From Pseudomonadota bacterium (GTDB taxonomy: Bacteria > Pseudomonadota > Alphaproteobacteria > Acetobacterales > Acetobacteraceae), in the NCBI GenBank assembly GCA_021808055.1, contig JAKBCH010000065.1, positions 1 through 9,475 on the forward strand: DNA of 9,475 bases, in the 5' to 3' direction. The notes below the pieces were generated by a model. The model worked only from the letters and a program-made list of their open reading frames with translations. It was not told the origin of the DNA and searched no databases. Made by a program: the position numbers and the translations under genes. Position 1 is the stretch's first letter. Every line of letters starts with the position of its first letter. Of the stretch, positions 79 through 9,475 are shown one piece after another.

Positions 79-116
79 CGTTCAATCTGCGCGCGGCCGT
101 TCAATCTGCGCGCGGC
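79..116. repeat. Perfect 19-bp tandem duplication
   Basis: The unit CGTTCAATCTGCGCGCGGC occurs at 79-97 and again at 98-116 with no spacer and no mismatch. It lies in non-coding sequence. A recent slippage duplication or a duplicated regulatory element are both possible, and nothing in the sequence decides between them. Confidence 0.85.
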
Positions 117-405: not shown

Positions 406-909
406 TTAATTTGCCCTTACAGCTGGTTCAAGCCGGTAATAGCGACGTTGATGATAAACCAACCCCGAAGCAGCGGGGTAGAGTTTTATGTTCTGCACAT
501 CGCAGAACATCACTTGATGCGTGCCGATTTCAACGATGTTGGATATCTGGCAATCCAGGGCAGCCGTGGCGTCCTCCAAAACCGGCGCGCCGGTTGAAAG
601 GCGCTGCCAGCCTGTCTGGGCAAAGCGTTCCGGCATGCTCATGCCGTGCTGTCCGGCAAAGATACGTGAAAGCTGCTCTCCATTAGCGTTAAGAACATTT
701 ACGCATAATGTCCCCGCTTGTCGGAATGCGCCTGCAATTCGGCTACTCTTATTCATGCACACCAAAATTGTCGCGGGCGTATCGGTTACGCTGCAAACGG
801 CAGATGCCGTGAACCCAATGTCACCATCAGGGGTTGAGGTGGTCACAATATTCACCGCAGCACCAAGCCGTGCCATGGCCTCCCGAAAATGCTGATTTTC
901 AACAATCAT
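406..909 (-). CDS. Flavin reductase, RutF/HpaC-like
   Basis: A 167-residue protein of the flavin reductase-like domain family, the small NAD(P)H:flavin oxidoreductases that feed reduced FMN or FAD to a partner monooxygenase in the cytoplasm. Visible family segments are FREAMARLGAAVNIVTT (residues 8-24), GFTASAVCSVTDTPATILVC near 32-51, a GTHQVMFCDV segment in the C-terminal third and GLVYHQRRYYRL near the end. The GAAVNIVTT and GFTASAVCSVTDTP segments are very close to E. coli RutF as I remember it, so RutF is a nearer relative than HpaC. A good Shine-Dalgarno, AGGAAGG (plus 919-925), lies 9 nt before the ATG. It is last in the minus-strand operon, 21 nt after the aldehyde dehydrogenase gene. 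The likely partner is the LuxA-like monooxygenase two genes upstream. I withhold the name rutF because the rest of the rut operon is missing. Confidence 0.9.
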   Translation of the reverse strand: MIVENQHFREAMARLGAAVNIVTTSTPDGDIGFTASAVCSVTDTPATILVCMNKSSRIAGAFRQAGTLCVNVLNANGEQLSRIFAGQHGMSMPERFAQTGWQRLSTGAPVLEDATAALDCQISNIVEIGTHQVMFCDVQNIKLYPAASGLVYHQRRYYRLEPAVRAN

Positions 910-930
910 GTTTTTATGCCTTCCTATGCT

Positions 931-2409
931 TCACCGCATCACGAACGGGTCTGGCAGCGGCGCTTCGGAGAGATTGATCCATACAGATTTCGTGCGCGTG
1001 TAATCCAGAATCACCTCAATCCCGCCCTCGCGCCCGAGCCCGCTTTCTTTGTACCCGCCAAAGGGAACCAAAGGTGAAATCACCCGATAGGTATTCACCC
1101 ACACCACTCCAGCACGGATATTGCGCGAGAGCCGATGAGCGCGAGCTAGGTCTTTTGTGAATACACCGCTCGCGAGCCCGAATTTCGAATTATTTGCCAG
1201 CACCAGGGCCTCATCCTCAGTATCGAACGCCACTATGCTCAGAACAGGTGCGAAGAACTCCTCGCACAGGCAGGGGGCCTCAAGCTTATGGCACAGCAGA
1301 ATCGTCGGGCGCAGATAAAATCCTGCGCTAAACCCCTCCGGCACGGTACCACCGGTGATCAATTCCGCTCCTTCCTCCAGGCTTGCTTTGATCAACGCCA
1401 AAGCACGATCCCGTTGCTTTACGGTAGCCAGCGGCCCCATCTGCGTATCTTGGCTAGCGGGGTTACCAATCACAATCTGTTCTGCCCTTGCTTTCAGCCT
1501 TCCCAGCAACGTTGCCAACAAAGGCCTTTGCACCAGCAAGCGCGATCCCGCCACGCAACTTTGGCCACTGGCCGCGAAAATCCCGGCGATCACGGCACTC
1601 ACCACATTGTCAACATCCGCATCTTCAAACACCAGCACAGGTGACTTCCCGCCCAGCTCGAGCGTCGTAGCAGCGAGGTTGGCCGCGGAATTGCGCACAA
1701 TATGCCGCGCCGTCTCCGGCCCCCCGGTGAAGGCGATGCGCGAAACCAGCGGATGCGTGGTCAGCGCTTGCCCACATTCCGCCCCGGTGCCGGTGATGAT
1801 GTTCACCACACCCGGCGGAAACCCGGCCTCATGCACGACGCGGGCGAATTCCAGTAAAGGTGCCGCGCCATCCTCGGCGGCTTTCAAAACCACAGTACAG
1901 CCGGCGGCCAGTGCAGGGCCTAATTTCACCGCCGCCAGAAAAAGTTGCGAGTTCCAGGGTACCATGGCCGCTACCACGCCCACTGGCTCGCGGCGCAGCG
2001 TCACGTCCATATCCGGCTTGTCCACCGGAACGGAGAAACCCATTACCTTGTCCGCCAGCCCGGCATAAAAGCGGAAATATTCGGCGATATAAGCAATCTG
2101 CCCGCTCGTCTCGCGGATGATCTTGCCCGTATCCCGCGTTTCCAGCGCCGCCAGACGTGGCGCGGCCTCTCCCAGCAAATCCCCTAACCGAAACAAAAGT
2201 TTGCCGCGCGCCGTGGCCGTCAACCCCGCCCAGGCGGGGTCGCGCAATGCCGCGTCGGCGGCATGCACGGCCCGGTCAACGTCTTGCGCGGAGGCAGAGG
2301 GCATCAACGCCCAGGGCTTGCCGGTCGCTGGGTCAAGGCTCTCAAAACACGCCGCCGCATCCTCGAATATTCCGGCAATGTAATGCTGGAAACGGGCCAA
2401 CTCAGGCAT
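931..2409 (-). CDS. NAD(P)+-dependent aldehyde dehydrogenase
   Basis: A full-length (492-residue) aldehyde dehydrogenase that should oxidise an aldehyde to the carboxylic acid in the cytoplasm. The fold is intact: PWN with Asn153, cofactor-site Lys176, an FTGG turn at 227-230, general base Glu251 in ELGGKSP, catalytic Cys285 in GQSCVAGSR, the second conserved Glu384, and the C-terminal PFGGYKESGLGREGG block at 449-463. Two usual motifs are altered: KPAE reads KAAE (176-179) and FGPV reads FAPV (386-389). These should not abolish activity but may affect cofactor handling or substrate. It resembles the broad betaine-aldehyde/hydroxymuconic-semialdehyde group, and the substrate cannot be read from sequence. 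Its ATG overlaps the end of the monooxygenase gene by 8 nt and its own Shine-Dalgarno is weak, so translation is probably coupled. Confidence 0.93.
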   Translation of the reverse strand: MPELARFQHYIAGIFEDAAACFESLDPATGKPWALMPSASAQDVDRAVHAADAALRDPAWAGLTATARGKLLFRLGDLLGEAAPRLAALETRDTGKIIRETSGQIAYIAEYFRFYAGLADKVMGFSVPVDKPDMDVTLRREPVGVVAAMVPWNSQLFLAAVKLGPALAAGCTVVLKAAEDGAAPLLEFARVVHEAGFPPGVVNIITGTGAECGQALTTHPLVSRIAFTGGPETARHIVRNSAANLAATTLELGGKSPVLVFEDADVDNVVSAVIAGIFAASGQSCVAGSRLLVQRPLLATLLGRLKARAEQIVIGNPASQDTQMGPLATVKQRDRALALIKASLEEGAELITGGTVPEGFSAGFYLRPTILLCHKLEAPCLCEEFFAPVLSIVAFDTEDEALVLANNSKFGLASGVFTKDLARAHRLSRNIRAGVVWVNTYRVISPLVPFGGYKESGLGREGGIEVILDYTRTKSVWINLSEAPLPDPFVMR

Positions 2410-3457
2410 ATTCGGGCACTTTCTGGAATTGCGGCATCACCTGCTCGATAAAGCGTGTCAGCGAGGCTTTCTTGCGTTCAAAGCTCATGCCGCTATCGAT
2501 CCATAGGCTGAACTGGTCATAGCCCAAAGCCTCATAGCTCTTCAGCCGCGCCACCACATCATCCGGCGTGCCGATGACGAGGTTTTTGCGCACTGCTTCC
2601 GGCGCATATTGCGGCATCGCCGCCATTTCTTCCGGCGTCAATTCCTCCATCATGCCTTGCGTTACCGGCTTCTTGTTCTGGAACCAGGCGCCGAAATAGC
2701 AATAGAAGCGACTCAACTCCTCCGCCCCGCGCGCGGCATCAGCTTCATCGGCAGCCACGTAGGTGTGTTGCAGCAGCATGATCTGTGGACGTTTAACCTG
2801 CGGGTTCGCTTCGCAGGCGGCGTTGAAGCGCTGCATCAGGCTTTCCACTTCCGCGTCACCGCTGGCCAGAGGCGTCACCTGCACATTGCATCCCGTCCGC
2901 ACCGCGAATTCATGCGAGTTCGGGTCCCGTGCGGCCACCCACATCGGAGGTCCACCCGGCTGCACAGGCTGCGGCACGGCACTGGTTTTCGGAAACTGCC
3001 AATATTCGCCCTGATGCTCATAATCGCCCTGGAATAGCTTTTGCACCGCGGGCACCAGCTCACGCATCCGCAAGCCTGCCTCCATCGGCGTCAGCCCAGG
3101 ATGCAGCCGCTCATATTCAAAACTGTACGCCCCTCGCGCGATCCCCAGTTCCAGCCGCCCGCCTGTGATAACATCCGTCATCGCCGTTTCGCCCGCCAGC
3201 TTGATCGGGTGCCAGAACGGCGCGATGACCGAGCTGGTGCCCAGCCGGATCTTCGTCGTCTTCGGCGCCAGATAGGCGATCTGGATGAACGGGTTCGGTG
3301 CAATGGTGAATTCCATGCCGTGATGCTCGCCGATCCAGGCGGCTTCCATCCCGCCCGCCTCGGCCATCTGCACCAGTGCCTCTAACTCGTGCAGAAGCTC
3401 GGTATGGCTTTGCCCGGGTTCCAGCCGTTCCATATGCACAAACAGCGAGAATCTCAT
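2402..3457 (-). CDS. LuxA-like flavin-dependent monooxygenase (LLM class)
   Basis: A 351-residue bacterial-luciferase-family TIM-barrel oxidoreductase, the oxygenase half of a two-component system that uses reduced flavin and O2. The N-terminal half resembles luciferase alpha: GEHHGMEF at 43-50, with Glu44-His45-His46 in the place of LuxA Glu43-His44-His45, then NPF (55-57), HPIKLAGE (83-90) and a GGRLELGIARGAY block (99-111). The position of the reactive LuxA cysteine is Ala107 here. His45 is the expected catalytic base by analogy. It is nearer to alkanal-monooxygenase-like proteins than to RutA. A Shine-Dalgarno GAGGGAG lies about 8 nt upstream of the ATG, and the gene starts 20 nt after the hydrolase stop. 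The flavin reductase two genes downstream is the obvious electron donor. The substrate is unknown; family members oxidise aldehydes, ketones, sulfonates or N-heterocycles. Confidence 0.9.
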   Translation of the reverse strand: MRFSLFVHMERLEPGQSHTELLHELEALVQMAEAGGMEAAWIGEHHGMEFTIAPNPFIQIAYLAPKTTKIRLGTSSVIAPFWHPIKLAGETAMTDVITGGRLELGIARGAYSFEYERLHPGLTPMEAGLRMRELVPAVQKLFQGDYEHQGEYWQFPKTSAVPQPVQPGGPPMWVAARDPNSHEFAVRTGCNVQVTPLASGDAEVESLMQRFNAACEANPQVKRPQIMLLQHTYVAADEADAARGAEELSRFYCYFGAWFQNKKPVTQGMMEELTPEEMAAMPQYAPEAVRKNLVIGTPDDVVARLKSYEALGYDQFSLWIDSGMSFERKKASLTRFIEQVMPQFQKVPEYA

Positions 3458-3477
3458 CGTCGTCGCTCCCTCGTAAA

Positions 3478-4299
3478 CTATTGCGCGGCTTGCAACAGCG
3501 CGGTTTCAGAAAAAAAACGGCTTAGGACTTCATTCACCAAATCTGGCGCGGCCAGGCTCATCATGTGGCGCTGACCGACAAGCGCCAAGGCCTGGCCCTC
3601 CGGGGCAGCCTCAGCCATGCGGCGGGACATTTCGGGTGACGAATTTTCGTCCTCTTCCCCGGTCAGGAACAAGGCGGGCATGGCCAGTTTCTCCAGCCGT
3701 CCTTCATGCGCGGCGTCGGACCTGGCGAACAACCCATAGGCGCGGACATAGCCTACCGGATTCACTGTCGTGAGCGAGGCGCCCACCCAGGCGGCGGTTT
3801 CCAGCAGATCCTGGGGCACCGGCACGCCGAACCAGCGGTCGATGGCGGCCTGCCGCCAGGCCAAGTCCTGCGCGCGGCCCTTCAGAGCCTCCGCCCGCGC
3901 CAGCACGGCGGCTCGCTGGGTTGGCGTGCGGCAATAAACCCCATTCATCGGCACTACAGCATTCACGCGTTCAGGATAGGTCAGCGCGAATTCCAGCGCG
4001 ATCAACGCTCCCATGGAATGGCCGACGAGGCTCACGCGCTCCAGCCCCAGCCCGTCCAGCAAGGCTAGAAGCTGCCCGGCATAATCGCCCAGATCTGGAG
4101 TGTCCGGCGGCAAAAGGCTGTTGCCATGGCCCAGCGTGTCGTAGGCGATCACATCCCAGTGCGGGGCGAAGGCGGCCATCTGGGGCGCCCAGAATCCGGC
4201 ATGCATGCCCACCCCGTGGATGAGCACCAGGGCCGGGCCGGACCCAGCGCGGCAATAGCCCGTGCCGCCCAACCGGCCGAGATGATAACTCTCAGCCAT
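3478..4299 (-). CDS. Alpha/beta hydrolase
   Basis: A 273-residue cytoplasmic alpha/beta-hydrolase-fold enzyme of normal single-domain length. The triad can be read directly: nucleophile Ser95 in GHSMG (93-97), acid Asp217 in LTGEEDENSSPE and His245 in GQRHMMSL. The oxyanion motif HGVG is at 28-31, and a YDTLGHGNS strand-turn follows at 53-61. The region 125-195, between strands 6 and 7, is the likely cap domain that sets substrate choice. The family includes esterases, C-C bond hydrolases, lactonases and the RutD type; the motifs do not distinguish these. The ATG overlaps the end of the preceding gene by 8 nt (4292-4299) and no strong Shine-Dalgarno is visible, suggesting translational coupling. 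Placed just before the monooxygenase gene, it could cleave an ester, lactone or amide formed by oxygenation. Confidence 0.9.
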   Translation of the reverse strand: MAESYHLGRLGGTGYCRAGSGPALVLIHGVGMHAGFWAPQMAAFAPHWDVIAYDTLGHGNSLLPPDTPDLGDYAGQLLALLDGLGLERVSLVGHSMGALIALEFALTYPERVNAVVPMNGVYCRTPTQRAAVLARAEALKGRAQDLAWRQAAIDRWFGVPVPQDLLETAAWVGASLTTVNPVGYVRAYGLFARSDAAHEGRLEKLAMPALFLTGEEDENSSPEMSRRMAEAAPEGQALALVGQRHMMSLAAPDLVNEVLSRFFSETALLQAAQ

Positions 4300-4879
4300 T
4301 CAAATCGCCCAGCTCGGCCAAATCTTTGTAACGGTCGCCAATCCGATGGTGCGGCCGCCCACCGATGGAGGCACCCAGCGCCACCAGAATCTCATCCTGA
4401 GCAGGGGCGTCATCGATACTGAACTGCACGGTAAGGTAATGCGAGCGCATGCCCTCATCATGCTTGTGCATCAGCGGAATCTGGATGGAGGCCCCCGGCC
4501 CACCGCGCGTGTTAGTGAAGGCAAGATAGGATTTCGCCCCCACCGCCTTGCGGTAATGATTACCAAAGCGCAGCGTATGGATCAGTGCCGAGGCATGTTC
4601 CACTTCGCCCGCGGTGCCGACGATGGCGCATTTGCCATAGCCTTCCACCGCCTCGCCCGAGCCCGCCAGGCGCAGGATCTCGGCAGTTAGAATCTGCCCC
4701 AGCTCCGGCCCGATGGCGCGGATTTCCGGAGAAAGGTCCTCCACAAAACCGCGCCCTGCCCAGGGATTGCTAAGCACAGCGGCGGCGGCGAACAGTTTGA
4801 ACGGACCAGGGGCGGCGCGCCCGCCTTCGATACGGATATCTTCGGTGAAGGTGACGAGCTTGCGCAGGGACAGCGTCAT
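4292..4879 (-). CDS. DUF1185 / 'amino acid synthesis' family protein (PF06684)
   Basis: A 195-residue protein with the hallmarks of Pfam PF06684: RKLVTF near the start, IRIEGG (15-20), a NPWAGRGFVEDLSP block (38-51), YGKCAIVGTAGEVEHASALIH (81-101, listed by its ends), a RGGPGASIQIPLMHK segment (125-139) and GGRPHHRIGD (173-182). Solved structures of the family show a variant of the Bacillus chorismate-mutase-like trimeric fold. The 'amino acid synthesis' label came from context and no reaction is established to my knowledge. The conserved His95, His101 and His138 are candidates for an active site. It is first in the minus-strand operon, with Shine-Dalgarno AAGGAG (plus 4886-4891) 6 nt from the ATG. 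The palindromic operator begins 5 bp upstream of that Shine-Dalgarno, so control is immediate. A RidA-like or hydrolytic step on the imported compound is a guess. Confidence 0.88.
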   Translation of the reverse strand: MTLSLRKLVTFTEDIRIEGGRAAPGPFKLFAAAAVLSNPWAGRGFVEDLSPEIRAIGPELGQILTAEILRLAGSGEAVEGYGKCAIVGTAGEVEHASALIHTLRFGNHYRKAVGAKSYLAFTNTRGGPGASIQIPLMHKHDEGMRSHYLTVQFSIDDAPAQDEILVALGASIGGRPHHRIGDRYKDLAELGDLNG

Positions 4880-4895
4880 GGCGGACTCCTTATTG

Positions 4896-4915
4896 TATTA
4901 TGGTATACCATAATA
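4896..4915. promoter_or_regulatory. Operator 1: perfect 20-bp palindrome
   Basis: TATTATGGTATACCATAATA is its own reverse complement. It lies between the divergent DUF1185 gene and the GntR gene and shares TTATGGTATACC with a second palindrome at 5818-5839. The GT-AT-AC core and symmetry fit GntR-family operators. It overlaps the proposed -10 of the minus-strand operon, which argues for repression by occlusion. The regulator encoded next to it is the likely ligand-responsive binder. Confidence 0.85.
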
Positions 4916-4936
4916 TTGACAGGAAGCCCGTGTAAA
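4907..4936 (-). promoter_or_regulatory. Predicted promoter of the catabolic operon
   Basis: On the minus strand TTTACA (plus 4931-4936) is followed after 18 nt by TATGGT (plus 4907-4912). The same two hexamers with the same 18-nt gap precede the import operon. Transcription would start near 4900, leaving a leader of about 20 nt that still contains the AAGGAG at 4886-4891. The -10 lies inside operator 1. TATGGT is a modest -10 match; an alternative is TTCCTG with CATAAT 17 nt on, within the same operator. Confidence 0.5.
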
Positions 4937-4974
4937 GAGGAAAGTGCACCTGCCCATCGTTTTTAACTCGGGCC

Positions 4975-5688
4975 ATGATAGAAAGAGCCAAAGGGAAACA
5001 GGTCCTGAACATGCCGGATACCCAACCAGACGCACTGCTGATCAACCGCCCCGCCAAAACTCTGCGGCAATTGACACTGGAAAAAATGCGAGAGGCAATC
5101 CTCACCCTGAAATTTCGCCCCGGAGAGCGGTTGGTGGAGCGGGCTTTATGTGAGCGTCTTGGCGTTAGCCGCTCCGTGGTACGGGAGGTATTGCGCAATC
5201 TGGAATCCGAAGGCCTGGTAGATACTATTCCTAATCATGGCCCCGCCGTGGCGGCTCCCGAGCCTGCGAAAATCGCGCAGATCTACGAGCTGCGCTCCAT
5301 GCTGGAAGCTTTGGCCGCCCGCCACTGCGCAGCTCGCGCCACGCCGGCCGACCTTGCCGCTCTACGCGCGGCTTTGGAAGAAGTACGCGAAGGCTATGCC
5401 AGCGCCGATGCCTTCGCCGTGCTGGCTGCCACCGCGAATTTCTACGAGGCGATGTTCCGCACAGCGGGGCGCCAAGTGGCGTGGGAATTGCTGGTTTCTC
5501 TGAACGGGCGCATCACCCACCTGCGCGCCCGCACCATCTCCACCTCCGGACGAGACAGGGAAGGAGTGGCCGAAATGCAGGCGATTTTGGACGCCATCGA
5601 GGTGCGGGACCCGGATGCGGCGGCAGCAGCCTCCGTAAGGCATCTGCAGAACGCCCTACAGCTAGCACTCACGCAAGACCAGCGCTGA
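4975..5688 (+). CDS. GntR-family transcriptional regulator, FCD type
   Basis: A 237-residue regulator with an N-terminal winged helix (about 30-93; the recognition region is LCERLGVSRSVVREVLRNLE) and an all-helical C-terminal FCD effector domain (about 105-232). The usual FCD metal site appears eroded: the D-x-x-F-H motif reads T-A-N-F-Y (153-157), the next His position is Met201 in AEMQAILDAI, and only His223 in RHL remains. Ligand sensing may therefore not need a metal. Two starts are possible. The ATG at 4975 has a poor ribosome site; the ATG at 5011 (giving MPDTQPD, 225 residues) has AAGGGAA and AGG upstream and may be the true one. The gene is divergent from the catabolic operon across operator 1 and is followed by the import operon with operator 2. 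It probably represses both operons and itself until the substrate or a product binds. Confidence 0.9.
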   Translation: MIERAKGKQVLNMPDTQPDALLINRPAKTLRQLTLEKMREAILTLKFRPGERLVERALCERLGVSRSVVREVLRNLESEGLVDTIPNHGPAVAAPEPAKIAQIYELRSMLEALAARHCAARATPADLAALRAALEEVREGYASADAFAVLAATANFYEAMFRTAGRQVAWELLVSLNGRITHLRARTISTSGRDREGVAEMQAILDAIEVRDPDAAAAASVRHLQNALQLALTQDQR

Positions 5689-5797
5689 ACGCCTTCTGCA
5701 GTGCACAAGAATTGGGCGTAGAGCTATTTTTGCGACTCCGGACGCACCGCTTTCGGGGTGTTGACGCTAAATAGGGCTGGAACGGACAATTTTCCCC

Positions 5798-5827
5798 TTT
5801 ACAGCGCCTTTCAAACAATCTTATGGT
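5798..5827 (+). promoter_or_regulatory. Predicted promoter of the import operon
   Basis: TTTACA (5798-5803) and TATGGT (5822-5827) are separated by 18 nt, identical in hexamers and spacing to the predicted catabolic-operon promoter. The -10 lies within operator 2. Transcription would begin near 5834, giving a leader of about 30 nt before the ATG at 5863. The repeated arrangement at two unlinked starts is the main support. TTTACA could alternatively be a binding half-site rather than a -35. Confidence 0.5.
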
Positions 5828-5839
5828 ATACCGTAAGAT
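5818..5839. promoter_or_regulatory. Operator 2: 22-bp palindrome with one mismatched pair
   Basis: The two halves around the centre at 5828/5829 pair over 11 positions except 5824 (T) against 5833 (G). The left part CTTATGGTATACC matches operator 1 over TTATGGTATACC. It ends 23 bp before the NIPSNAP start codon and overlaps the predicted -10. It lies about 920 bp from operator 1, with the regulator gene between them, so one protein probably serves both sites. Confidence 0.82.
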
Positions 5840-5862
5840 AAACATATCGAGGCTCGCACCGA

Positions 5863-6201
5863 ATGTTCTACGAGATGCGTACCTACAGGCTGAAGACCGG
5901 CACGGTTCCGGCCTATCTGAAGCTGGTCGAGGAGGAAGGCATCGCCATCCAGAGTGCGCATCTGGGCGGGCTGGCCGGCTATTTCTCCACTGAGATCGGC
6001 CCGCAGAACGAGGTCGTGCATATCTGGGCCTACCCCAGCCTGGATGAGCGCGAGCGCCGCCGCGCCGCCCTCATCCGCGATGAACGCTGGCTGGCGTTCA
6101 TTCCCAAAACCCAGGCCCTGATCGAGACGATGGAGACGAAAATCCTGCGTCCCGCGCCCTTCTCGCCGCTGCCTGGCAATCCGTTCAACAAGGAGGTCTG
6201 A
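5863..6201 (+). CDS. NIPSNAP-family protein
   Basis: A 112-residue protein of the NIPSNAP family (dimeric alpha/beta-barrel, ferredoxin-like fold). Recognisable are the opening MFYEMRTYRLKTGTVPAYL (1-19), GLAGYFSTEIGPQNEVVHIW (36-55, listed by its ends) and the segment SLDERERRRAALIRDERWLAF, which is typical of the family. There is no signal peptide, so it should be cytoplasmic. Bacterial members have no firm biochemical role; many sit beside oxygenase or degradation genes, and small alpha/beta-barrel monooxygenases share the fold. It leads the import operon directly behind operator 2. A weak GAGG lies 10 nt before the ATG. Its last codons contain the strong AAGGAGGT (6190-6197) that serves the binding-protein gene starting 2 nt after its stop, so the two are translated as a unit. 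Confidence 0.88.
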   Translation: MFYEMRTYRLKTGTVPAYLKLVEEEGIAIQSAHLGGLAGYFSTEIGPQNEVVHIWAYPSLDERERRRAALIRDERWLAFIPKTQALIETMETKILRPAPFSPLPGNPFNKEV

Positions 6202-6203
6202 AG

Positions 6204-7214
6204 ATGCGTCGCTTGGGCTTGGGTCTTTGTCTGGCATTGGGCACCGCTGCCGCGGCCCAGGCGCAGAGTAGCATGGTGTTCACAAGCTGGGGAGGCACCA
6301 CCCAGCAGGCCCAGCAGAAGGATTGGGCCGATCCGTTCTCCAAGGCCACCGGCATCAAGGTGCTGCAGGACGGGCCGACCGATTACGGCAAGTTCAAAGC
6401 CATGGTGCAGAGCGGCAATGTCTCCTGGGACGTGGTGGATGTAGAGAGCGACTTCGCCCAAGCCGCCGCCAAGGATGGACTGCTCGCCCCCATCACTCTG
6501 CCCGCCGCCGATGCGGCACAGATCGACCCGCGTTTCCTCAGCCCGGATGCCGTCGGCTCCTTCTATTATTCCTTCGTTATCGCCTACAACAAAAACAAGT
6601 TCAAAGGCGATGAACCGAAGACGATGGCGGACCTGTTCAACGTCAAGAAATTCCCCGGCAAGCGCTGCTTCTATAAATGGTCCTTCGCCGGTGTGCTGGA
6701 AGCCGCCTTGCTGGCGGACGGTGTAAAGCCAGACCAACTCTACCCGCTGAATCTCAACCGCGCCTTCAAGAAGCTCGACACGATCAAGAAAGATATTGTC
6801 TGGTGGAGCACCGGCGCGCAATCTCAGCAGCAGCTTGCATCCGGCCAATGCCCGATCAGCTTGATGTGGAACGGCCGCGTGCAAGCGTTGGAGGATTCTG
6901 GCGTGCCCGTGGCAATGAGCTGGGACGATAATCTTACCACCGGCGACATGCTGGTGATCCCGAAAGGAGCCCCCAACATGGCGGCGGCGCAGAAATTCAT
7001 CGCTTACGCTACCAGCGCCGAGGCCCAGGCCAAGTTCGCCACAGATACCGGCTATGCCCCGGTGAACAAAGGCTCCGCCGCGCTGATGGGCCCGAAAGCC
7101 CTGGCGGAACTGCCCAACGCCCATGCCGCCACGCATATCGACCTCAATATGGATTATTGGGCCGCGCATCGTGACGATATCGCCAACCGCTGGTACGCAT
7201 GGCAGACCAAATAA
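6204..7214 (+). CDS. ABC transporter periplasmic binding protein, polyamine type
   Basis: A 336-residue extracellular solute-binding protein of the PotD/PotF type, which captures the substrate in the periplasm for the permeases encoded next. A Sec signal peptide is clear: MRR, a hydrophobic core, and a cleavage site AQA at 18-20 before Gln21. The mature start VFTSWGG (25-31) and the later WNG (222-224) and TGDMLVIP (246-253) blocks are typical. By my alignment to E. coli PotD, Trp29, Trp222 and Asp248 match the ligand-contacting Trp34, Trp229 and Asp257, while PotD Trp255 is replaced by Thr246. The ligand may thus carry an amine but need not be putrescine or spermidine. Two mature-chain cysteines, Cys155 and Cys216, could form a disulfide. 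The Shine-Dalgarno AAGGAGGT is 6 nt from the ATG. The gene overlaps the first permease gene by 16 nt. Confidence 0.9.
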   Translation: MRRLGLGLCLALGTAAAAQAQSSMVFTSWGGTTQQAQQKDWADPFSKATGIKVLQDGPTDYGKFKAMVQSGNVSWDVVDVESDFAQAAAKDGLLAPITLPAADAAQIDPRFLSPDAVGSFYYSFVIAYNKNKFKGDEPKTMADLFNVKKFPGKRCFYKWSFAGVLEAALLADGVKPDQLYPLNLNRAFKKLDTIKKDIVWWSTGAQSQQQLASGQCPISLMWNGRVQALEDSGVPVAMSWDDNLTTGDMLVIPKGAPNMAAAQKFIAYATSAEAQAKFATDTGYAPVNKGSAALMGPKALAELPNAHAATHIDLNMDYWAAHRDDIANRWYAWQTK

Positions 7215-8080
7215 CCCTGACCGGGGCGGTGCAAACCGCCCCGCCTGAAAAAAAGCGCCGCCGCCCCAGGGGCTTTGCCCCGGCGGTGCCGGTTCTGGCC
7301 TTTCTGCTGCTCTGTTTCGCCCTGCCGGTTCTGGCTCTGCTGCTACGCTCCATCCTAGAGCCGCATTTCGGCCTGCAGAACTACGCCGCCCTTCTGGCCA
7401 CCGGTACCTATGCGAATGTGCTGGAAAATACGTTCCTGATTTCCTTTATCGTTACCGCCATCACCGCGTTGGTGGGGCTACCCCTGGCTTGGTTCATCAC
7501 CGTGGCGCCGCGCCGGCTGGGGCGGCTGGTGTTCGGCATCGTCATCCTCTCCATGTGGACCAACCTGCTGGCCCGCACCTATGCTTGGATGGTACTGCTG
7601 CAGGATAACGGTCCCATCAATAATTTCCTGATCTGGGCGGGTCTGATCCAGAATCCTCTGCCACTCTATGGCAGTATGGCGGGGGTGGTGATCGGCATGG
7701 TCTATATCATGCTGCCCTTCATGGTCATTTCCCTGCGCGGCCCGCTGGCTTCGCTCGATCCCTCGATGTTCCAGGCTGCCTCGCTCTGCGGCGCCTCGCG
7801 CCTGCAAAGCTTCACCCGCATCTTCCTGCCCTTGCTGCTACCGGGCCTGGCGGCGGGCGGGCTCATTATCTTCGTGATGTCGCTTGGCTATTACATCACC
7901 CCGTCTTTGCTGGGCGGCGCGCAGGACATGATGCTGGCCGAACTCATCGCCCAGCAGGTGCAAACCTTGCTCAATTGGGGCCTGGCCGGTGCCGCCTCCT
8001 TCTTACTGCTGGTGGTCACACTCGCCCTCTACGCCGTGCAGGCGCGCTATCTCGCCCCGCACAGCCAGAAAAGGAGCTGA
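7199..8080 (+). CDS. ABC transporter permease 1 (PotB/PotH-like)
   Basis: A 293-residue inner-membrane permease of the binding-protein-dependent type. After a proline- and lysine/arginine-rich cytoplasmic start (14-24) come about six membrane helices, near 27-50, 78-101, 109-131, 158-179, 212-236 and 262-282. The EAA loop that docks on the ATPase reads QAASLCGASRLQSFTRIFLP (192-211), with the conserved Gly198. The segment TNLLARTYAWMVLLQDNG (121-138) is typical of PotB-like permeases. The start lies within the last codons of the binding-protein gene in another frame, and the next gene begins 3 nt after the stop, behind the ribosome site AAGGAG (8071-8076). It should pair with permease 2 as a heterodimer. 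Confidence 0.92.
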   Translation: MADQITLTGAVQTAPPEKKRRRPRGFAPAVPVLAFLLLCFALPVLALLLRSILEPHFGLQNYAALLATGTYANVLENTFLISFIVTAITALVGLPLAWFITVAPRRLGRLVFGIVILSMWTNLLARTYAWMVLLQDNGPINNFLIWAGLIQNPLPLYGSMAGVVIGMVYIMLPFMVISLRGPLASLDPSMFQAASLCGASRLQSFTRIFLPLLLPGLAAGGLIIFVMSLGYYITPSLLGGAQDMMLAELIAQQVQTLLNWGLAGAASFLLLVVTLALYAVQARYLAPHSQKRS

Positions 8081-8083
8081 TCC

Positions 8084-8884
8084 ATGCTGCTGGATTTCTC
8101 GCAGCTCGGCTGGTTGCGCGTTGCTCTCTGCGGGGTGGCGGGGTTGGCGGTGGTGTTTCTGCTCGCCCCCCTATGCCTGCTCATCGCGCTCTCTTTCGAT
8201 AGCTCGCAATGGCTGCAATTCCCGCCCCCGGGCTGGACGCTGCAATGGTATCAGGAGGTCTTCGCCGACCCGAACTGGCTAAGCTCCTTCCTCACCTCCG
8301 TTGAGCTTGGCATCGTCGTCACATTAGCCTCGGTCCTGCTCGGCCTGCTCGCGGGCTTCGCTATAGCTCGCGGCAATTTCCCTGGACGCGAGACGATGCG
8401 CGGCTTTTTCCTGACGCCGATGATCATGCCCTCCATCGTGCTGGGCATCGCGCTCTATGCCACCTTCCTGCGACTGCATCTGGCGGGCACGTTTCTTGGC
8501 TTCGTACTGGCGCACCTGGTGCTGGCCTTACCCTTCTCTATCGTCGCCATTACCAGCGCGTTGGAACAAACGGACAAATCATTGGAAGACGCCGCCATGC
8601 TCTGCGGCGCCTCGCTATGGGAAGCGCGCATCCGTGTAATTCTTCCCGCCATCAGTCACGGCATTTTCTCCGCCGCCATCTTCTCCTTCCTCACCTCGTG
8701 GGACGAGGTGGTGGTGGCCATCTTCATGTCCAGCCCCGGCCTACAAACCTTGCCGGTACGCATGTTGGGCGAGGTGCAACAGAATCTCTCACCGGACATA
8801 GCTGTGGTGTCCTCTTTGCTCGTGCTCGGCACCATCCTGCTCATGGGGCTGGCGGCTCTTTTTAATAAGGATTCAAAGCGATGA
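8084..8884 (+). CDS. ABC transporter permease 2 (PotC/PotI-like)
   Basis: A 266-residue inner-membrane permease, the second half of the transport channel. Helices are visible near 11-38, 68-94, 107-130, 136-158, 188-212 and 240-260. The EAA loop LEDAAMLCGASLWEARIRVI (167-186) carries the conserved Gly175, and the periplasmic PPGWTLQWYQEVF (48-60) segment is typical of PotC-like proteins. Shine-Dalgarno AAGGAG lies 7 nt before the ATG. The stop overlaps the ATPase start as ATGA (8881-8884), a classic coupled junction. Confidence 0.92.
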   Translation: MLLDFSQLGWLRVALCGVAGLAVVFLLAPLCLLIALSFDSSQWLQFPPPGWTLQWYQEVFADPNWLSSFLTSVELGIVVTLASVLLGLLAGFAIARGNFPGRETMRGFFLTPMIMPSIVLGIALYATFLRLHLAGTFLGFVLAHLVLALPFSIVAITSALEQTDKSLEDAAMLCGASLWEARIRVILPAISHGIFSAAIFSFLTSWDEVVVAIFMSSPGLQTLPVRMLGEVQQNLSPDIAVVSSLLVLGTILLMGLAALFNKDSKR

Positions 8885-9475
8885 GCGGCGCCTATCTCGA
8901 ACTGCGCAATCTCCGCAAGGAATTCGGGGACTTTGTAGCCATCAATAACATTTCCCTGCGGATTGAAAAAGGCGAGTTCATCACCTTCCTCGGTCCGTCA
9001 GGCTCCGGCAAAAGCACCACACTATATGCCATTGCGGGCTTCATTGAGCCCAATGCGGGCGATGTGCTGCTTAACGGCCGCTCCCTGGTTGGGGTTTCGC
9101 CAAATCACCGCGACATTGGAATGGTCTTTCAGCGCTATACTTTATTCCCGCATCTCACCGTGGCGGAGAATATTGCTTTTCCCCTGCGCGTTCGCCGCCG
9201 CCCAAAAGCAGAAATTGACTCAAAGGTGAAGGAGATGTTGGACCTTGTGCATCTCACACCCATGCGCGACCGCAAACCCGCTCAGCTCTCCGGCGGTCAG
9301 CAGCAACGAGTCGCTCTGGCACGCGCCTTGGCTTATGATCCCCAGATTTTGCTGATGGACGAACCACTCTCCGCGCTCGACAAAAAACTCCGTGAGGACA
9401 TTCAAACAGAAATTAAACGCATCCACCTCGAAACCGGCGTGACCATCATCTACGTCACGCATGACCAGGAAGAAG
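8881..9475 (+). CDS. ABC transporter ATP-binding protein (PotA-like), cut by window end
   Basis: The first 198 residues of a PotA-type ATPase are present and the reading frame is open to the last base. All nucleotide-binding motifs are visible: Walker A GPSGSGKST (38-46), Q-loop Gln84, signature LSGGQQQ (136-142), Walker B ILLMDEP (156-162), D-loop SALD (164-167) and the switch His194 in VTHDQEE. The variable C-terminal regulatory (TOBE-type) domain expected for this subfamily lies beyond the window. A Shine-Dalgarno AAGGA (8867-8871) is 9 nt from the ATG. It completes a four-gene importer with the binding protein and two permeases and hydrolyses ATP at the cytoplasmic face. Confidence 0.95.
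   Translation, partial: MSGAYLELRNLRKEFGDFVAINNISLRIEKGEFITFLGPSGSGKSTTLYAIAGFIEPNAGDVLLNGRSLVGVSPNHRDIGMVFQRYTLFPHLTVAENIAFPLRVRRRPKAEIDSKVKEMLDLVHLTPMRDRKPAQLSGGQQQRVALARALAYDPQILLMDEPLSALDKKLREDIQTEIKRIHLETGVTIIYVTHDQEE

What the first reader, a model, noticed from the sequence alone, without database searches (positions are those of the whole stretch)
406..9475. A co-regulated import-plus-oxidation locus that looks like a Rut-style pathway for an unidentified substrate
Seen: a five-gene operon (DUF1185, alpha/beta hydrolase, LuxA-like monooxygenase, aldehyde dehydrogenase, RutF-like reductase) divergent from a GntR regulator and a NIPSNAP-led polyamine-type importer. Known: the Rut pathway joins a flavin oxygenase, a RutF reductase, a YjgF/Rid-family protein (RutC), an alpha/beta hydrolase (RutD) and a dehydrogenase to open uracil. 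Inference: this set copies that logic with different oxygenase, fold-analogue and transporter parts, so it may open or cleave another imported, possibly nitrogen-containing compound and finish with an aldehyde-to-acid step. I know of no described pathway with these components.
Basis: partly seen in the sequence, partly recalled or inferred. Interest (0 to 1): 0.75.

Follow-up and report, generated by a model that had tools for sequence, protein, structure and literature searches.

The report
Trigonelline-type import and ring-opening operon
This Acidocella locus looks like a version of the known bacterial pathway that imports and opens the ring of the plant betaine trigonelline, and its importer belongs to the same family as a published 'GABA-specific' binding protein that itself turns out to sit in a trigonelline-type gene cluster.

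Summary
The genes are as described: DUF1185, alpha/beta hydrolase, luciferase-like monooxygenase (LLM), aldehyde dehydrogenase, flavin reductase, divergent from GntR, NIPSNAP and an ABC importer. The claim of an undescribed Rut-like pathway fails: the set matches the tgn (trigonelline ring-cleavage) pathway. The LLM is 62-63% identical to Acinetobacter proteins NCBI names trigonelline monooxygenase. DUF1185 is the TgnF family. The gene string recurs in Acinetobacter, Burkholderiales, roseobacters and Sinorhizobium meliloti pSymA, the last with the same NIPSNAP and importer; S. meliloti needs pSymA to grow on trigonelline. GntR operators are conserved.

New here: the binding protein keeps all eight GABA-contact residues, yet Atu4243, published as GABA-specific, itself lies in a complete tgn cluster. 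That SBP type and TgnA-type LLM co-occur in 16 of 16 Agrobacterium genomes; the other 23 have neither. Its repressor, whose derepression was reported unknown, fits the cluster's GntR by gene count. Acidocella probably replaced the two-domain reductase by a native single-domain one. Trigonelline as substrate is inferred, not shown.

The parts
406..909 (-). single-domain flavin reductase (reduced-flavin supplier for the oxygenase); stands in for the two-domain TgnB-type reductase of other tgn clusters
   Evidence: PF01613 126 bits; RutF 194.8/254.75, HpaC 173.5/205.95 bits, both under cut-off; 27-30% to the TgnB position of L149, L059, L188; homologue in 17 of 17 genomes of the genus tested, own included
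931..2409 (-). aldehyde dehydrogenase in the TgnC position
   Evidence: PF00171 522 bits; 60% to Acinetobacter, 65% to S. meliloti cluster ALDH
2402..3457 (-). TgnA-type luciferase-like monooxygenase, oxygenase component
   Evidence: PF00296 192 bits; 62-63% to NCBI-named trigonelline monooxygenases of Acinetobacter; inside a starred TgnA-type group
3478..4299 (-). alpha/beta hydrolase in the TgnD position
   Evidence: PF00561 89.7 bits; 39-42% to Acinetobacter and S. meliloti cluster hydrolases; 46-62% to type-B hydrolases outside the genus
4292..4879 (-). DUF1185/PF06684 protein, TgnF homologue
   Evidence: PF06684 234 bits; PDB 2qtp, 3byq; 65-70% to L149, L059, L188; TgnF link from PMC7913881
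4898..4913 (.). palindromic site, likely GntR operator of the catabolic operon
   Evidence: TTATGGTATACCATAA, none in 200 shuffles; TGGTATACCA with at most 1 mismatch upstream of 102 of 111 DUF1185 genes
4975..5688 (+). GntR-FCD regulator (42% to the Acinetobacter, 50% to the Agrobacterium cluster regulator)
   Evidence: PF00392 and PF07729; identities; start codon not fixed
5821..5836 (.). second site, in front of the NIPSNAP-importer genes
   Evidence: TTATGGTATACCGTAA
5863..6201 (+). NIPSNAP protein, accessory, function unknown
   Evidence: PF07978 116 bits; in 21 of 89 related loci, mostly right after the ALDH
6204..7214 (+). periplasmic solute-binding protein of the Atu4243/Pf622 (GABA-binding) family
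   Evidence: 60% to Atu4243; the 8 GABA-contact positions kept (W29,T33,F120,Y122,W222,R225,D248,Y284)
7199..8080 (+). ABC permease 1 (PotB-like)
   Evidence: PF00528; 55% to S. meliloti pSymA cluster
8084..8884 (+). ABC permease 2 (PotC-like)
   Evidence: PF00528; 61% to S. meliloti
8881..9475 (+). ABC ATPase, first 198 residues in the window; complete (345 aa) in the contig
   Evidence: open ORF; full ORF on the contig; 69% to S. meliloti cluster ATPase

Best explanation
A tgn-type catabolic locus of an Acidocella species. GntR represses both divergent transcription units through TGGTATACCA-type operators and is released by the substrate or an intermediate (inferred). The ABC importer takes up a carboxylated N-methylpyridinium betaine, most likely trigonelline (inferred). 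The flavin reductase feeds reduced flavin to the LLM, which opens the ring. The ALDH (TgnC role) oxidises the released aldehyde. The alpha/beta hydrolase (TgnD role) splits the formamido-methylene-succinate to methylamine, formate, CO2 and succinic semialdehyde. A succinic semialdehyde dehydrogenase encoded elsewhere finishes to succinate, and DUF1185 (TgnF role) helps that last step. Shown here: gene families, close relatives and conserved order. Recalled, not shown: the ADP1 reaction scheme. Inferred: substrate and regulation.
For: LLM 62-63% to Acinetobacter proteins NCBI calls flavin-dependent trigonelline monooxygenase; JGI gives that name to homologues up to 81% identical. DUF1185 = TgnF family (PMC7913881 passages). 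DUF1185, hydrolase, LLM and ALDH found in 89 of 89 loci chosen by LLM or DUF1185 similarity, and in Acinetobacter with NCS1 permease and SSADH. In the evenly drawn class sample, 7 of the 10 other loci with LLM of 52% or more keep all four genes. S. meliloti pSymA holds the set with NIPSNAP, importer and SSADH, 7.7 kb from noeB; wild type but not the pSymA-less strain grows on trigonelline (PMC4207669 passage), and Goldmann 1991 (title only) places the genes in the pSym symbiotic region. The transporter beside the cluster is NCS1, this ABC system or a BCCT carrier in different taxa. Operator conservation.
Against: No activity is shown. The window LLM lies outside the clade (type A) of the Acinetobacter and S. 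meliloti proteins; six LLM, seven hydrolase, two ALDH and three DUF1185 positions are near-fixed differently (from which 17 distant loci were left out). Four Caballeronia species carry both types side by side. The binding protein keeps a GABA site. No SSADH is on the 10-kb contig or in the 20-kb regions of three congeners; the best in the genome is a 41% match. The best gmaS-like match in this genome is 43%, no clear sign of methylamine use. 3 of 10 class-sample loci lack the whole set. After learning that the SSADH is absent, not merely beyond the contig end, I lowered confidence from 0.73 to 0.71.
Confidence: 0.71

Rival explanations
1. Type-B clusters such as this one act on a related but different N-heteroaromatic (another N-methylpyridinium carboxylate or a neutral pyridine carboxylate), using the same chemistry.
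For: Shared type-B residues in LLM (V29,E33,I42,Y62,I70,Q315), hydrolase and ALDH across Acetobacteraceae, Aquabacterium, Caballeronia and Mesorhizobium (L056 deviates at 42 and 62); position 42 is two residues before the conserved EHH motif; both types adjacent in four Caballeronia species.
Against: In the outgroup-rooted tree type B is a grade (held as one clade: p-AU 0.053), so the differences may mark only the type-A stem. Same operator and regulator family. In those Caballeronia loci the type-A set has no reductase of its own and lies beside the type-B one, and some Burkholderiales keep an extra reductase, some also a B-like hydrolase, by the importer without a second oxygenase in the region read, as expected of shared, redundant function. 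Type-B loci L056 and L162 adjoin probable N-methylglutamate genes, fitting methylamine release.
Confidence: 0.2
2. The importer is a GABA importer merely linked to the catabolic genes because GABA and trigonelline both end at succinic semialdehyde.
For: The 8 GABA-contact positions are kept in 46 of 46 cluster SBPs; Atu4243 is reported as highly GABA-specific (PMC3907764 passage); SSADH follows the importer in several loci, e.g. L059 and L188. Aminotransferase genes lie near some clusters: class I/II on the opposite strand beyond the importer in L156, and others near NCS1-type clusters L053, L057, L060.
Against: The importer and NCS1 or BCCT carriers largely stand in for each other beside the cluster (35 SBP only, 33 NCS1 only, 13 both, 17 neither of 98 loci; 3 of the 17 have a BCCT-type gene). 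In Agrobacterium, Atu4243-type SBPs occur only with TgnA-type LLM (16 of 16; none in the other 23). No aminotransferase lies between the catabolic genes and SSADH in L056 and L059.
Confidence: 0.25
3. A Rut-type (pyrimidine) pathway.
For: RutF and RutD are among the family models matched; shared logic of flavin oxygenase, reductase and hydrolase.
Against: Both matches are far below cut-off (194.8/254.75; 90.9/238.5); no Rid-family protein in the 10 proteins scanned; the LLM groups with named trigonelline monooxygenases.
Confidence: 0.02

Closest known systems
tgn trigonelline pathway of Acinetobacter (ADP1, Perchat 2018: recalled, paper not held; compared here with A. baumannii locus L149)
   Same: TgnA, TgnC, TgnD, TgnF counterparts, divergent GntR, operator motif
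   Different: ABC importer plus NIPSNAP instead of an NCS1 permease; single-domain reductase at the operon end instead of a two-domain one between hydrolase and LLM; no SSADH on the contig; type-B residues
S. meliloti pSymA cluster (L059)
   Same: every window gene has a counterpart at 42-69%, except the reductase (30%)
   Different: importer co-directional with the catabolic genes; SSADH follows; two-domain reductase
Agrobacterium Atu4232-Atu4243 region (L188; gene names inferred by counting)
   Same: GntR, DUF1185, hydrolase, LLM, ALDH, NIPSNAP, SBP, permeases, ATPase, then SSADH
   Different: described only as a GABA importer in the papers seen; an extra amino-acid-type ABC system and Fe-ADH between GntR and DUF1185
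pyr pyridine pathway of Arthrobacter 68b (recalled)
   Same: two-component flavin ring cleavage leading to succinic semialdehyde
   Different: unsubstituted pyridine; sequences not compared here
Rut pyrimidine pathway
   Same: general logic
   Different: RutF and RutD models below cut-off; no Rid protein found

Membership tests
tgn trigonelline pathway | TgnA-type LLM oxygenase | tested here: met
   62-63% to NCBI-named Acinetobacter proteins; one starred group
tgn trigonelline pathway | flavin reductase partner encoded with it | tested here: met
   PF01613 protein 406-909
tgn trigonelline pathway | the reductase is the orthologous two-domain TgnB | tested here: not met
   167 aa against 310 aa in Acinetobacter; 27-30% to the TgnB position; hence 'variant'
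tgn trigonelline pathway | TgnC-type aldehyde dehydrogenase | tested here: met
   60-65%
tgn trigonelline pathway | TgnD-type alpha/beta hydrolase | tested here: met
   39-42%, same place next to DUF1185
tgn trigonelline pathway | TgnF (DUF1185) | tested here: met
   65-70%; name from PMC7913881
tgn trigonelline pathway | TgnE succinic semialdehyde dehydrogenase in the cluster | tested here: not met
   none on the 10,078-base contig nor in congeners L155, L156, L158; 41% homologue elsewhere; only 28 of 89 related loci have it in the stretch read, so it is not a constant part
tgn trigonelline pathway | activity on trigonelline | not testable with these tools
   needs an enzyme assay or growth test
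Rut pathway | RutF and RutD equivalogs | tested here: not met
   below NCBIfam cut-offs
Rut pathway | Rid/RutC protein (PF01042) | tested here: not met
   absent among the 10 window proteins scanned
Atu4243-type GABA-binding proteins | eight GABA-contact residues | tested here: met
   8 of 8 (residues from PMC12999171 section 7)
Atu4243-type GABA-binding proteins | binds GABA | not testable with these tools
   needs calorimetry

The most novel reading that the evidence does not exclude
The ABC importer family here, including the structurally solved 'GABA-specific' Atu4243, is really the trigonelline (pyridinium-betaine) importer of tgn operons. GABA is a mimic of the ring zwitterion held by the Arg-Asp pair, and the unknown inducer that relieves Atu4232 repression of atu4243 is trigonelline or one of its ring-opening products.
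Probability: 0.5. Interest if true: 0.72.

Novelty: new variant of a known kind. Interest (0 to 1): 0.5.

Why it matters
It gives a likely substrate class to a widespread operon that looks anonymous from sequence. It ties NIPSNAP and a GABA-type ABC importer to trigonelline catabolism. It offers a concrete, testable answer to a question reported as open for Agrobacterium (PMC3907764, passage): what switches on atu4243, and why a GABA-binding importer is normally fully repressed. If trigonelline is the true ligand, the reported role of this protein as a dedicated GABA receptor needs re-reading, and a new ligand could be tried on GABA-sensor scaffolds.

Tried and rejected
Rut membership: rejected. 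Polyamine importer: PotD and PotF models far below cut-off; nearest structures are GABA binders. The RutF-like gene as a conserved core part: rejected; among the Acetobacteraceae loci it is in L155, L156, L158 and L159, L157 has neither reductase type in the region read, and L160-L162 have the two-domain one. A second, NMT1-type importer beside congener locus L155 as the real carrier: its binding protein is found only in L155 among the loci searched. Methylamine assimilation in Acidocella as support: uninformative. Reaching A. baylyi itself through an 'Acinetobacter venetianus' plasmid record failed: its LLM is identical to that of Pantoea eucrina, so A. baumannii L149 and three NCBI-named Acinetobacter proteins stand in for ADP1. 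Type B as one clade: not supported, not clearly rejected. No structure prediction was run.

Limits of the counts: the 89 loci are the best 80 of 266 hits to one LLM plus 9 plasmid loci that I picked (L058 is a paralogous cluster; L060 and L061 share one LLM), so choice favours synteny; genes were counted per locus, and in four Caballeronia loci the type-A set itself lacks a reductase (in L132 also a hydrolase). The class sample is fairer: 7 of 10 other loci at 52% or more keep the four genes, and DUF1185 was seen in none of the 10 loci at 35-47%, some of them on short contigs. The Fisher p ignores relatedness. The background includes the upstream regions themselves. L036-L051 and L058 were left out. 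In Agrobacterium, neighbourhoods were read for 6 genomes and L140; the other pairs rest on coordinates. Of the 17 loci with neither SBP nor NCS1, some are short or end near the importer (L128, L132, L138); BCCT was sought with one query and L097 scores just under the BCCT subfamily cut-off.
Full report
What is there. It is most of a 10,078-base contig of an 81%-complete genome; the ATPase cut by the window end is complete on the contig, which ends 163 bases later. The organism is Acidocella-like: the LLM is 91% identical to one named Acidocella aminolytica. Congeneric loci L155 and L156 keep all eleven genes at 71-97% identity, and L158 keeps them at 62-86% in another order. The LLM occurs in 5 of 38 genomes of the genus, own included.

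What it is. Some close relatives of the LLM carry the JGI name 'flavin-dependent trigonelline monooxygenase, oxygenase component', and NCBI gives that name to Acinetobacter proteins P0121-P0123, which are 62-63% identical to the window LLM. [quoted passage not shown] baylyi ADP1. PMC8269262 (passages) states that trigonelline degradation begins with ring opening by TgnA/TgnB. The rest of the scheme (TgnC oxidising the aldehyde, TgnD hydrolysing to methylamine, formate, CO2 and succinic semialdehyde, TgnE oxidising it) I recall from Perchat 2018, which the library does not hold.

Neighbourhood. In A. baumannii locus L149 the order is GntR (divergent), DUF1185, hydrolase, two-domain reductase, LLM, ALDH, NCS1 permease, a 389-aa gene without a Pfam match, SSADH. 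In S. meliloti pSymA (L059) it is GntR, DUF1185, hydrolase, reductase, LLM, ALDH, NIPSNAP, SBP, two permeases, ATPase, SSADH, 7.7 kb from the nodulation gene noeB. PMC4207669 (passage) tells wild-type S. meliloti from the pSymA-less strain by growth on trigonelline, which only the wild type shows; [quoted passage not shown] Aquabacterium pTB101 (L056) shows the same NIPSNAP and importer string beside genes that include a type III glutamate-ammonia ligase; I read those, from memory, as N-methylglutamate genes, which would fit methylamine release. DUF1185, hydrolase, LLM and ALDH are all found in 89 of 89 loci, SBP in 39, NIPSNAP in 21, SSADH in 28 (selected loci; see limits). In the evenly drawn class sample (289 genomes), 7 of 10 other loci with LLM of 52% or more keep the four genes and 3 do not.

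Regulation. TTATGGTATACCNTAA sits once in each divergent promoter region. TGGTATACCA with at most one mismatch lies upstream of 102 of 111 DUF1185 genes, against 146 of 6,422 background stretches. This is the likely GntR operator; its effector is inferred.

Importer. The SBP is 60% identical to Atu4243 (4EQ7/4EUO) and to Pf622, the GABA-sensor scaffold. The eight GABA-contact residues given in PMC12999171 (section 7 read) are kept in 46 of 46 cluster SBPs (position 102 is Tyr in 44 and Phe in 2, both found in the references). Yet different carriers stand beside the cluster: SBP only in 35, NCS1 only in 33, both in 13, neither in 17 of 98 loci, and 3 of the last 17 have a BCCT-type betaine carrier right after the ALDH (L133, L135, and L097 just under the subfamily cut-off). 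That points to a betaine as cargo. Atu4243 itself lies in a complete tgn cluster: the genome whose SBP is 100% identical to 4eq7 (G530) has GntR, four other genes, then DUF1185, hydrolase, reductase, LLM, ALDH, NIPSNAP, SBP, permeases, ATPase, SSADH. Counting back from Atu4243 makes this GntR Atu4232. PMC3907764 (passage) says atu4243 is totally repressed by the atu4232 product and that derepression is unknown. Across 39 genomes of that Agrobacterium genus, Atu4243-type SBP (85% or more) and TgnA-type LLM (E at most 1e-100) occur together in 16 of 16, on one contig with gaps of 1.8-2.1 kb; the other 23 have neither, one of them a 37% SBP only. Five papers naming Atu4243 were checked and none contains 'trigonelline'. 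I had no search left to pair the two words across the library, and Planamente 2012 is only recalled, so the link may be new but I cannot claim it is unpublished. Against the betaine reading stand the intact GABA site and the reported GABA specificity; I give a GABA importer 0.25.

How this copy differs. (1) The two-domain reductase between hydrolase and LLM is missing; a 167-aa single-domain reductase sits at the operon end. All 17 genomes of the genus tested (of 38; own included) carry such a reductase, mostly 53-61% identical, and G000 has a second, 57% copy on another contig, so a native reductase was probably duplicated and recruited. L157 has the cluster with neither type in the region read, and in four Caballeronia loci two oxygenase sets share one reductase gene, so partners seem exchangeable. 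(2) The LLM belongs to a basal set (type B) with six near-fixed differences from type A. In the outgroup-rooted tree type A is a clade (100/99) and type B a grade (p-AU 0.053 for one clade). This may mean a different substrate, or only that type A changed on its stem. (3) The importer is divergent from the catabolic genes, with its own operator. (4) No SSADH is in the cluster here or in three congeners.

Verdict. Observation confirmed; interpretation partly supported. The pathway kind is known (tgn); this is a variant. The most interesting consequence is the reassignment it suggests for the Atu4243 importer family.

Noticed in passing
L188 (G530:C2:1356500-1376400): The SBP identical to the 4EQ7/4EUO 'GABA-specific' Atu4243 is inside a complete tgn cluster, and its reported repressor fits the cluster's GntR by gene count.
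   Followed up: yes
L128, L132, L138, L139: Four Caballeronia species carry type-A and type-B cassettes next to each other, divergently arranged; only the type-B one has a reductase gene.
   Followed up: partly
L081, L087, L088, L090, L092, L120, L124, L126, L127, L129-L131: Burkholderiales with a type-A cluster keep an extra reductase, and in some a type-B-like hydrolase, beside the ABC importer, without a second oxygenase in the region read.
   Followed up: no
L058 3802-9591; G530:C3:219336-219860; L108 16762-20448: Agrobacterium pAt plasmids carry a paralogous set (reductase, ALDH, LLM about 44%, hydrolase, carboxymuconolactone decarboxylase family, NIPSNAP, DUF1185) beside a proX-type betaine importer: perhaps another betaine pathway. 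Shinella L108 has a similar DUF1185, reductase and ALDH.
   Followed up: no
L052 7205-9004: In Mesorhizobium ciceri pMESCI01 the hydrolase and flavin reductase are fused in one reading frame.
   Followed up: no
L055 13337-20273: In Acidiphilium multivorum pACMV1 the LLM is interrupted by an IS110-family element and the cytosine permease by ISAcr1: a decayed copy.
   Followed up: no
L060: A plasmid record labelled Acinetobacter venetianus encodes an LLM identical to that of Pantoea eucrina; possible mislabelling or transfer.
   Followed up: no
L155 12650-16749: Downstream of the cluster in one congener: an NMT1-type ABC importer and two DUF1989 genes.
   Followed up: partly
window 79-116: A 19-base sequence (cgttcaatctgcgcgcggc) stands twice head to tail near the contig end (79-97, 98-116).
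   Followed up: no
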